Source: Paenarthrobacter sp. DKR-5 (GTDB lineage Bacteria > Actinomycetota > Actinomycetes > Actinomycetales > Micrococcaceae). Taken from it: DNA of 64,000 nucleotides. A program made the position numbers and the translations under genes. The notes under the pieces are model-generated. The model had not been told where the DNA came from and made no database searches. It saw nothing but the letters and a program-made list of their open reading frames with translations. The stretch lies in NCBI RefSeq assembly GCF_018531425.1, contig NZ_JAHBOI010000008.1, forward strand, positions 62,001-126,000. Direction: 5' to 3'. This document shows, in pieces, positions 7,960 through 60,648 of the stretch; position 1 is the stretch's first letter, and each line of letters opens with the position of its first letter.

Positions 7960-7984
7960 CCCCCTGAGGGCGCGGACGCGCGAG

Positions 7985-8033
7985 CGGCCAGTTGCGGCGG
8001 CTTCGAGCGTCGAGAAGCCGCCGCAACTGGCCG
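7985..8033. repeat. Dispersed intergenic palindrome, copy 1
   Basis: Two perfect 20-bp arms (CGGCCAGTTGCGGCGGCTTC and its complement, 7985-8004 and 8014-8033) around a 9-base loop. It lies between two convergent stop codons (7959 and 8052). It shares the GGCCAGTTGyGGCGG core with seven other copies in the window. No T run follows either arm. Confidence 0.85.
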
Positions 8034-8051
8034 TTCGGCCGAGGGAGGGCG

Positions 8052-24810: not shown

Positions 24811-24858
24811 GATGAATCCCTTTCAAGCAGGTGTCGGACGGCGGACGGGCCGTCTCAC

Positions 24859-24873
24859 TGTTGACAGTCAACA
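24859..24873. promoter_or_regulatory. Operator site 1 in the divergent region
   Basis: Perfect palindrome TGTTGAC-A-GTCAACA, 48 bases upstream of the MHS start. Same motif family as the sites at 24911, 24942 and 21491. Confidence 0.7.
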
Positions 24874-24910
24874 GGCTGTGCCAAACAGTGTGATGGAAAC
24901 CACTCAGCAA

Positions 24911-24925
24911 TGTCAACAGTCAACA
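24911..24925. promoter_or_regulatory. Operator site 2 in the divergent region
   Basis: TGTCAACAGTCAACA, two overlapping half-sites (GTCAACA) spaced by one helical part of the motif. It overlaps a minus-strand TTGACA that could be the -35 for the MHS transporter gene. Confidence 0.6.
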
Positions 24926-24941
24926 AAAACGGTAAAACTGG

Positions 24942-24960
24942 TTGACTGTTGACAGTCGAC
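24942..24960. promoter_or_regulatory. Operator site 3 overlapping the isomerase promoter
   Basis: TTGACTGTTGACAGTCGAC contains the inverted repeat GACTGT-TG-ACAGTC. Its TTGACT/TTGACA can serve as -35 with TAACGT (24966-24971) as -10 for the gene at 25014, so binding would block RNA polymerase. Confidence 0.6.
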
Positions 24961-26642: not shown

Positions 26643-26658
26643 GCACGCTCAGGGCAGG

Positions 26659-26717
26659 CGAAAGGCCAGTGGTGGCGGGCTCGCGACCGGGGAGCCCGCC
26701 ACCACTGGCCTTTCGCG
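26659..26717. repeat. Dispersed intergenic palindrome, copy 3
   Basis: Perfect 25-bp arms (26659-26683 and 26693-26717; outer GCGAAAGGCCAGTGGTGGCG) with a 9-base loop, between the convergent SDR and iolT stop codons (26642 and 26735). Best preserved copy together with copies 7 and 8. Confidence 0.88.
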
Positions 26718-36666: not shown

Positions 36667-36723
36667 ACGAGAGGCCAGCAGCGGCGGGCTTCCGTGAGGA
36701 AAGCCCGCCGCTACTGGCCTCTC
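36667..36723. repeat. Dispersed intergenic palindrome, copy 5
   Basis: Two 24-bp arms (36667-36690, 36700-36723; outer CGAGAGGCCAG) with one mismatched pair and a 9-base loop. It lies next to a G-rich run and 12 bases from the left end of the IS110 element. Confidence 0.82.
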
Positions 36724-36751
36724 GGCGGGGGGGGTGCCTCTATGGTTTTCG

Positions 36752-37951
36752 TCAAGCGGCTGAAGGTTGTCGTGGTTCGTATAAGGTGCCGTCTCTGAGC
36801 ATGGCGTAGAGGGTGTCGCATCGGCGACGGGCGAGTGCGATGAGAGCCTGGTTGTGGCGTTTGCCCTCGGTTCGTTTCCTGTCGTAGTAGGCCCTCGACA
36901 GAGGATCCTTCAAGGCGGCGAACGCGGAGAGGAACAGGGCTCGCTTGAGAATCTTGTTTCCTTTCCGGGATGGGTGGTCACCGCGGATGGAGGACCCTGA
37001 TCGCCAGGTCACCGGTGCCAGGCCTGCGTAGGAGGCCAGGTGCCCTGCAGAGGCGAAGTCTTTGCCGACGATCTCGGTGAGGATCCGTGCTGCGGTCCTG
37101 ACGCCGACCGCCGGCAGAGACGTCAGGACCGGGTGAAGAGGGTGGGCCTCCACGAGGGCTTCGACCTGGGTGAAGACGGTGTCCCGGGACTCGCGGATGT
37201 CGGCGAGCATCCGGGCCAGTTGGGGCAGCACGATCGTGGCCGCGTTGGTCCCTACGACGGTGACTGTTTGCTGGTCCAGGGCTTCGATGATCTCCCCGGC
37301 AAGGCGCTTACCCATCCGGGGTGCAAGTTTTGTCAGCCGGGTTTCGATGCGGCGCCGGCCCGCGTGGCGCAAGGCTTCGGGGGTCGGCCAGGTCCGCAGC
37401 AGATCCAACACTGCCGGGTGGTCCAGTCGCGGGCCAAGGACACGCTCCAGTGCCGGGTGGATCTGGGTGAGCAGGCCGCGGATCCGGTTCGAGGTTGCGG
37501 TGGCCTGTTTGGCCAAGTCGTCGTCGAAGCCGCAGAGCATGGTCAGCTCGGCGAGTTGTTCGTCGGCGATCTGGATGGAGCGCAGCGTGTGGGGCATGGT
37601 CCGGGCCGCTTCGGCGATGATGAACGCGTCCCGGGCATCGGTTTTCGCCTCGCCCGGGTGCAGGTCGGCGATCCGGCGCATCGCCAGTCCGGGCAGGTAT
37701 CCGACCGTGACGCCGGCGGCTTGGGCAACGGCGACGGGGAGTGCACCGATCGTGGCCGGCTGGTCAACGACGAGCAGGATGGTGCCATGCTTGTTCAAAG
37801 AGTCGAGGATCTCGCGCAGCCTGGCCTCGTCGTTAGGCAAGGCCTTGTCGAAGAGCTTCTTCCCGGCCCGGTCCACTGCAACGGCGTGGTGTTCGCCCTT
37901 GCCGACATCCAAGCCGACGAAGACATCAGTGCTTTCGTGGTTTCCGATCAC
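36752..37951 (-). CDS. IS110-family transposase
   Basis: 399 residues, full length for the family. N-terminal DEDD nuclease domain with VGLDVGKGEHHAVAV (first Asp), LLVVDQPA and KTDARDAFIIAE; C-terminal Transposase_20 domain with LTSLPAVGVRTAARILTEIVG and SYAGLAPVTWRSGSSIRG, carrying the serine used for catalysis. Starts at GTG (37951) after GGGAGG. No frameshift. IS110 enzymes use an RNA encoded by the element to choose target and donor sites. Confidence 0.93.
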   Translation of the reverse strand: MIGNHESTDVFVGLDVGKGEHHAVAVDRAGKKLFDKALPNDEARLREILDSLNKHGTILLVVDQPATIGALPVAVAQAAGVTVGYLPGLAMRRIADLHPGEAKTDARDAFIIAEAARTMPHTLRSIQIADEQLAELTMLCGFDDDLAKQATATSNRIRGLLTQIHPALERVLGPRLDHPAVLDLLRTWPTPEALRHAGRRRIETRLTKLAPRMGKRLAGEIIEALDQQTVTVVGTNAATIVLPQLARMLADIRESRDTVFTQVEALVEAHPLHPVLTSLPAVGVRTAARILTEIVGKDFASAGHLASYAGLAPVTWRSGSSIRGDHPSRKGNKILKRALFLSAFAALKDPLSRAYYDRKRTEGKRHNQALIALARRRCDTLYAMLRDGTLYEPRQPSAA

Positions 37952-38056
37952 CTGTACCTCCCAGTCGCAGCAGTTGATACCAGTGCTGGACTGTCCGCGG
38001 TGTCAGAGCCCGGCATCCACGTTACGCACGACGATCCCAAACTGTCCTGCCTCTAT
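37952..38056 (-). ncRNA. Candidate bridge RNA of the IS110 element
   Basis: The non-coding stretch between the inferred element end and the transposase start, on the transposase strand. IS110 elements encode their targeting RNA in this position. GGACAGT occurs twice in it, once next to the end repeat. At about 105 bases it is short for a bridge RNA, so its boundaries and structure are not proven. Confidence 0.3.
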
Positions 38057-38235
38057 TAGCGGTCTCTCCGGCACCTACCGGACCCCGGTGACAACACCCC
38101 CCGGATCATTGACGACTGGGGGCGGCAATCATGCCGGGGCCGGCAGGCCAGCACACCCACATCCTGCAACAGAAACGGGCTACGAAAAAGGTAACGGGGG
38201 CGGCGGGGGGTGTGGCGACGCGAAGCGCCCCCGGG

Positions 38236-49224: not shown

Positions 49225-49279
49225 GAAAGGCCAGTTGTGGCGGGCTAACGCGAAGCGAGCCCGCCACAACTGGCCTTTC
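49225..49279. repeat. Dispersed intergenic palindrome, copy 7
   Basis: Perfect 22-bp arms (49225-49246, 49258-49279; outer GAAAGGCCAGTTGTGG) around an 11-base loop that itself can pair CGC/GCG. It lies between the dehydrogenase stop (49295) and the MFS upstream region. Confidence 0.88.
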
Positions 49280-60587: not shown

Positions 60588-60648
60588 GCCGAACGGCCGC
60601 TAACGGCGGGCTCCGCCCACGGAAACCCGCCGTTAGCGGCCGTTCGGC
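60588..60648. repeat. Dispersed intergenic palindrome, copy 8
   Basis: Perfect 23-bp arms (60588-60610, 60626-60648; outer GCCGAACGGCCGCTAACGGC) with a 15-base loop, between the convergent phosphoketolase and pcrA stop codons. Its inner core is GCTAACGGCGGG rather than GTTGTGGCGGG, so it is a subtype. Confidence 0.85.

What the first reader, a model, noticed from the sequence alone, without database searches (positions are those of the whole stretch)
36667..38056. Intact IS110 element abutting a REP-like palindrome, with a short candidate bridge RNA
The transposase has all family motifs and no interruption. TGCCTCTAT with a CT core is found at both presumed ends, as expected from target and donor similarity. 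The left junction is 12 bases from palindrome copy 5. Elements of this group often use repeats as targets, so the family of palindromes may be its landing pads.
Basis: partly seen in the sequence, partly recalled or inferred. Interest (0 to 1): 0.6.

Follow-up and report, generated by a model that had tools for sequence, protein, structure and literature searches.

The report
IS110 element guided to C-runs
This is an intact, RNA-guided jumping gene of the known IS110 family whose guide RNA aims it at runs of cytosine, so the nearby palindrome is a bystander; some of its close relatives have had their guides rewritten to hit repeats that are abundant in their own host.

Summary
An intact IS110-group insertion sequence is present, but its limits are 36735-38196 (1462 bp), not 36667-38056. 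Aligned copies show that the left end (transposase sense) lies 140 bp further out. The second TGCCTCTAT, taken for an end, is the left donor guide inside the bridge RNA (38048-38056). The leader of about 244 nt holds a covarying two-loop bridge RNA like that of IS621. Its donor guides match the element's own ends, and its target guides match a C-run. About 150 loci with related transposases, from Micrococcales to Burkholderiales, sit almost always in C-runs; two empty sites in related plasmids lie in C-runs; a tandem copy shows the predicted circle junction ATAGGGG-CA-CGTTACC. The palindromes are not the landing pads: hairpins lie near 8 of 108 junctions (4 of 101 controls), and the host's other palindromes lack C-runs. 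Where guides changed, targets changed with them: sister elements in strains MA-N2 and OY3WO11 hit a dispersed repeat, and one guide base follows the host's own version of it (ACGCTCGCTCAC or ACGCTCTCTCAC). The element is a 91% relative of ISArsp5. Known kind, well-supported mechanism, modest novelty.

The parts
36735..38196 (-). Complete IS110-group element (ISArsp5-like), 1462 bp, from CGTTACC (left end, 38196) to ATAGAGGCA (right end, 36735) in transposase sense
   Evidence: Abrupt loss of similarity at both ends in close relatives; full-length 91-92% matches to copies elsewhere
36752..37951 (-). Transposase (recombinase) gene, 399 aa, GTG start
   Evidence: PF01548 and PF02371; NF033542 above cut-off; no internal stop
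37984..38153 (-). Bridge RNA scaffold: outer stem, target-binding loop, donor-binding loop
   Evidence: Consensus fold; 30 scaffold pairs 96.5% paired, 13 with double-sided changes
38119..38128 (-). Left target guide UUGCCGCC-CC (pairing may run on to 38117)
   Evidence: 8 contiguous matches (GCCGCCCC) to the left flank
38095..38103 (-). Right target guide CGGGGGG-UG
   Evidence: Complement of [CA]CCCCCCG; right junction reads [CA]CCCCCCCCG
38048..38056 (-).
   Evidence: Identical to the right end; covaries with it across 113 copies
38018..38025 (-). Right donor guide GUAACG-UG
   Evidence: Complement of CA-CGTTAC at the RE-LE junction
36735..36743 (-). Right end, left donor sequence ATAGAGG-CA
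   Evidence: Conserved in relatives up to this point
38190..38196 (-). Left end, right donor sequence CGTTACC
   Evidence: Conserved in relatives from this point
36750..36755 (-). TTGACG in the right end: proposed -35 box of the junction promoter of the circle
   Evidence: TTGAC[AG] 14-15 nt before the junction in 82 of 92 distinct copies, control 30/3020
36727..36734 (.). Target C-run, right-end side (GGGGGGGG on +)
   Evidence: Sequence; relatives' junctions lie in C-runs
38197..38204 (.). Target, left-end side (GCCGCCCC on -)
   Evidence: Sequence; matches left target guide
36668..36724 (.). Host palindrome, intact, 10 bp outside the element; not part of it

Best explanation
A complete IS110-group insertion sequence of the ISArsp5 kind. 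The recombinase is expected to excise the element as a circle. The RE-LE junction of the circle (ATAGAGG-CA-CGTTACC) joins a -35 box in RE to a -10 region in LE and so transcribes the bridge RNA. The donor loop pairs with that junction; the target loop pairs with a C-run; recombination between CA and CG inserts the element without a clear duplication. The element landed in a run of about 12 Cs that happens to lie 10 bp from a host palindrome. Shown: boundaries, guide RNA fold, agreement of guides with ends and targets, and a circle-type junction and empty sites in relatives. Inferred: excision, transcription and activity of this particular copy.
For: Boundaries. Two-loop RNA with compensatory changes. 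Donor guide and right end agree exactly at the variable positions in 94% of 113 copies, 31% when shuffled. Target guides and flanks agree here and in relatives; right-guide/right-target match exceeds all 5000 shuffles, and retargeted guides sit at correspondingly changed sites. Tandem junction as predicted. Empty sites in C-runs. -35 box in 82/92 right ends. Recombinase domains shared with IS621 and ISCro4.
Against: No empty allele of this exact site was found; no RNA data; the element is single-copy in its genome, so recent movement is not shown. Occupied alleles at the two empty sites have longer C-runs than the empty ones (about 7 against 5, and about 10 against 5), so a small duplication or slippage cannot be excluded. 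The second catalytic acid is Asp in a DQP motif, not the Glu of IS621, though it is conserved in the relatives. Shuffles do not remove the relatedness of the copies.
Confidence: 0.92

Rival explanations
1. One reading: the element ends at 38056, has TGCCTCTAT at both ends with a CT core, and uses REP-like palindromes as landing pads.
For: TGCCTCTAT occurs twice and the palindrome is 10 bp away. Some IS110 elements do target REPs (PMC1525189; PMC11208160).
Against: Similarity runs 140 bp past 38056. Copies with the same guides lie in C-runs. No enrichment of hairpins at junctions, and the host's palindromes lack C-runs.
Confidence: 0.03
2. The conserved leader is mainly a structured 5' UTR that regulates translation; the C/G arms of the first loop are simply a hairpin stem and not target guides.
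For: The two arms are complementary to each other in most relatives, so their covariation alone could be structural.
Against: The arms also follow the flanking DNA in the retargeted copies (MA-N2, OY3WO11, Streptomyces), which a stem would not; the Streptomyces arms (CCCC and GAAAAG) are not complementary throughout; the donor loop matches the element's own ends.
Confidence: 0.04
3. Same mechanism, but the core dinucleotide is the CG just right of the exchange point rather than the CA just left of it.
For: The right-guide base that tracks the target variant in MA-N2 and OY3WO11 lies in that dinucleotide; the following UG would then act as a handshake guide for the donor's CA (IS621 precedent, PMC11208158); several lineages have LDG AUAGAGGCACG.
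Against: Four independent right ends carrying CC (L125, L025, L031, L055) and two left ends carrying CA (L128, L156) look like a CA/CC core settled either way; IS621 is cut just after its core, which fits CA.
Confidence: 0.35

Closest known systems
ISArsp5 (Arthrobacter sp. FB24 plasmid 1, NC_008537)
   Same: Whole element aligned, same ends, same donor guides, C-run target; 94% aa
   Different: 90.8% nt identity: a sister element rather than the same one; its right end carries CC instead of CA
IS621 (IS110 group, bridge RNA)
   Same: Recombinase domains, upstream two-loop RNA, donor and target guides, -35 in RE for a junction promoter
   Different: Targets C-runs, not REP; donor junction CA|CG instead of a CT core shared by donor and target; second acid D in DQP
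ISEc11 / ISXne4 (IS1111 group, seekRNA; PMC11187229)
   Same: RNA-guided target choice with natural reprogramming between close relatives
   Different: IS1111 members carry the RNA downstream of the transposase gene and have subterminal inverted repeats; here the RNA is upstream
ISPpu9, ISPpu10, ISPa11 (REP-targeting IS110 members; PMC1525189)
   Same: Same family, site-specific
   Different: They are inserted inside REPs at a fixed position; this one lies beside an intact palindrome in a C-run

Membership tests
IS110 family | DEDD/RuvC-like N-terminal domain (PF01548) and C-terminal domain with a conserved serine (PF02371) | tested here: met
   Both Pfam domains above cut-off; NF033542 234 bits against a cut-off of 140; SGSS motif aligned with IS621
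IS110 family | Catalytic D-E-D-D residues | tested here: inconclusive
   D15, D105 and D108 are in place; the second acid appears to be D63 (DQP) and not Glu; conserved in the aligned relatives
IS110 group (as against IS1111) | Long non-coding left end upstream of the gene, short right end, no long subterminal inverted repeats | tested here: met
   About 244 nt upstream and 17 nt downstream of the gene
Bridge-RNA elements | Two-loop RNA whose loops match donor junction and target | tested here: met
Bridge-RNA elements | RNA expressed from a junction promoter and bound by the recombinase | not testable with these tools
   Only the -35 box was tested
Bridge-RNA elements | Circular intermediate | tested here: inconclusive
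   Tandem RE-LE junction in relative L147; not seen in this genome
REP-targeting IS110 elements | Insertion inside a repetitive palindrome at a fixed position | tested here: not met
   Palindrome intact and 10 bp away; relatives are in C-runs
ISArsp5 (same named element) | About 95% nt or 98% aa identity (usual IS naming practice, recalled, not looked up) | tested here: not met
   90.8% nt, 94% aa: a sister element

The most novel reading that the evidence does not exclude
This clade is a bridge-RNA lineage specialised on homopolymer C-runs that recombines although the donor and target core dinucleotides usually differ at one base, and it switches to host-specific dispersed repeats by small changes in the guide, so that the guide follows the host's own version of the repeat (C to A in the guide, G to T in the repeat).
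Probability: 0.5. Interest if true: 0.55.

Novelty: new member of a known kind. Interest (0 to 1): 0.37.

Why it matters
It corrects the annotation of a programmable recombinase (true ends, full guide RNA, target rule) and replaces the palindrome idea. It also points to a natural experiment in which closely related bridge recombinases changed targets by changing guides. C-runs as default targets, and a CA/CC core mismatch, would widen the sequence space thought usable by bridge recombinases.

Tried and rejected
The window's own genus holds no second genome. Rfam gave only sub-threshold matches. Single-sequence folding was not informative (z -1.24). Neighbouring genes in relatives (tautomerase and triosephosphate isomerase) are separated by other genes, so they gave no empty allele of this exact site. 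Chromosomal flanks of L130 and L128 were not conserved up to the junction within their genus. The flank of the L022 copy gave no empty site. A first model with the core taken as the two bases before CGTTACC in both partners was revised after the retargeted copies and the tandem junction were read. One script failed, one structure string had the wrong length, two searches used a wrong handle. One palindrome pattern was too strict and found nothing. No structure prediction was run because sequence evidence settled the question.

Full report
Check of the observation. The window holds a 399-codon, uninterrupted IS110 transposase gene at 36752-37951 on the minus strand. It carries PF01548 and PF02371, passes NCBIfam NF033542 'IS110 family RNA-guided transposase', and its C-terminal domain aligns with IS621 and ISCro4, both of solved structure. 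The palindrome at 36668-36724 is real: 24-nt arms, 96% complementary. TGCCTCTAT is present twice. The boundaries given are not right.

True ends. Aligned in the sense of the transposase, the element and its close relatives (83-95% aa, from Arthrobacter genomes and plasmids) stay alike well past 38056, up to CGTTACCTTTTTCGTAGCCC (38196 downward), and then diverge at once. At the other end they share ATAGAGG-CA and diverge in a C-run. The unit is 36735-38196, 1462 bp, and matches the closest copies at 91-92% over its whole length. NCBI names the copy on the FB24 plasmid ISArsp5. The element is single-copy in its own genome.

What the second TGCCTCTAT is. The upstream region of about 244 nt folds, over 21 aligned relatives, into an outer stem and two successive loops. 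Thirty scaffold pairs are 96.5% paired, 13 of them change on both sides, and no shuffle of 500 reaches the covariation score; sliding the partners by one base destroys the signal. The second loop carries AUAGAGGCA (38048-38056), identical to the element's right end, and GUAACG-UG, complementary to CA-CGTTAC of the circle junction. Across 113 distinct copies whose right end was located without using the guide, guide and end agree exactly at the four variable positions in 94% of cases, against 31% when shuffled (maximum 49% in 5000). Shuffling does not remove relatedness, but the agreement spans several independent guide types. This is the left donor guide of a bridge RNA in the scheme of IS621 (PMC11208160). 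One relative, L147, holds a head-to-tail tandem whose junction reads ATAGGGG-CA-CGTTACC followed by a full left end, which is the predicted circle junction.

The target. The first loop carries UUGCCGCC-CC and CGGGGGG-UG. The left flank of this insertion is GCCGCC-CC and the right flank CCCCCCCCG. In about 150 loci with related transposases, from Micrococcaceae to Burkholderiales, the guides are nearly always C-run and G-run and the junctions lie in C-runs: of 126 right flanks counted, 102 begin with five or more Cs. In the window's genome G followed by eight Cs occurs once and its mirror form seven times, so long C-runs are rare there. Two empty sites were found in related plasmids: the FB24 copy against Paenarthrobacter AT5, and the Hiyo8 copy L021 against NicSoilB8. 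In both the uninterrupted sequence has a run of about five Cs at the insertion point. The occupied alleles have longer C-runs, so a tiny duplication or slippage cannot be excluded for this target type.

Natural retargeting. Sister elements in Arthrobacter strains MA-N2 and OY3WO11 (83-86% aa) have the left guide ACGCU and right guides GAGCG-UG and GAGAG-UG. Their rejoined flanks, such as AAACGCT|CGCTCACC and GGACGCT|CTCTCACTT, reproduce a repeat found nearby. Genome-wide, ACGCTCKCTCAC occurs 47 times in MA-N2, 46 of them with G, and 69 times in OY3WO11, 66 of them with T; the reversed control gives one and none. The single base that differs between the two right guides is the one that differs between the two hosts' repeats. 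The window's genome holds this motif once. Streptomyces relatives (L092, L094, L096, L099) carry GAAAAGG or GAAAAAG guides and lie at CCTTTT or CTTTTT. The overall match between right guide and right target exceeds all 5000 shuffles. Because the rejoined targets of this group restore the repeat, these insertions show no duplication.

Core. The exchange point lies between CA and CG of the donor junction. I favour CA as the donor core with CC or CT in the target: four independent right ends carry CC and two left ends carry CA, as expected if a mismatched core is settled either way. CG is not excluded. In either case donor and target usually differ at one core base, unlike the shared CT of IS621.

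Promoter. TTGAC[AG] lies 14-15 nt before the junction in 82 of 92 distinct right ends, against 30 of 3020 control stretches. This fits a promoter with its -35 box in RE and its -10 in LE, complete only in the circle, as in IS621. That the circle forms and transcribes here is inferred.

The palindrome. Fourteen distinct members of the family were recovered from the genome; apart from the one beside the element, only one has even five Cs or Gs in a row within 25 nt. Hairpins with arms of 12 or more lie within 60 nt of 8 of 108 junctions (one an artefact of Ns, one the window itself), against 4 of 101 control stretches. The palindrome is intact and 10 bp from the junction. The adjacency is best read as coincidence in an intergenic region.

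Verdict. An ordinary but well-preserved member of a known family, with corrected boundaries, a complete bridge RNA and a target rule that replaces the palindrome idea. The most interesting observation is in the relatives: guides that follow host-specific repeat variants. Natural reprogramming between close insertion sequences is already reported for ISEc11 and ISXne4 (PMC11187229), so the novelty is modest.

Noticed in passing
genomes of L026 (G462, Arthrobacter sp. MA-N2) and L028 (G463, Arthrobacter sp. OY3WO11): A dispersed, often tandem (about 32-bp period) intergenic repeat with the motif ACGCTCKCTCAC, 47 and 69 exact copies, nearly fixed for G in one genome and T in the other. What it is for is unknown.
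   Followed up: partly
window 7981-8037, 26658-26716, 36668-36724, 49225-49279, 60588-60648: REP-like palindrome family, consensus about GAACGGCCAGTTGTGGCGGGCT, loop 9-15 nt; at least 14 distinct copies in the genome. Not linked to this element.
   Followed up: partly
L147 (G349:C3): Head-to-tail tandem of a related IS110 element showing the circle-type junction ATAGGGG-CA-CGTTACC.
   Followed up: yes
L025 / L131 (Arthrobacter sp. 260): The right target guide is expanded to a run of about 13 Gs, perhaps by slippage in the guide itself.
   Followed up: no
window 24857-24956: Cluster of GTCAAC/GTTGAC inverted repeats (TGTCAACAGTCAAC / GTTGACTGTTGACA), possibly an operator.
   Followed up: no
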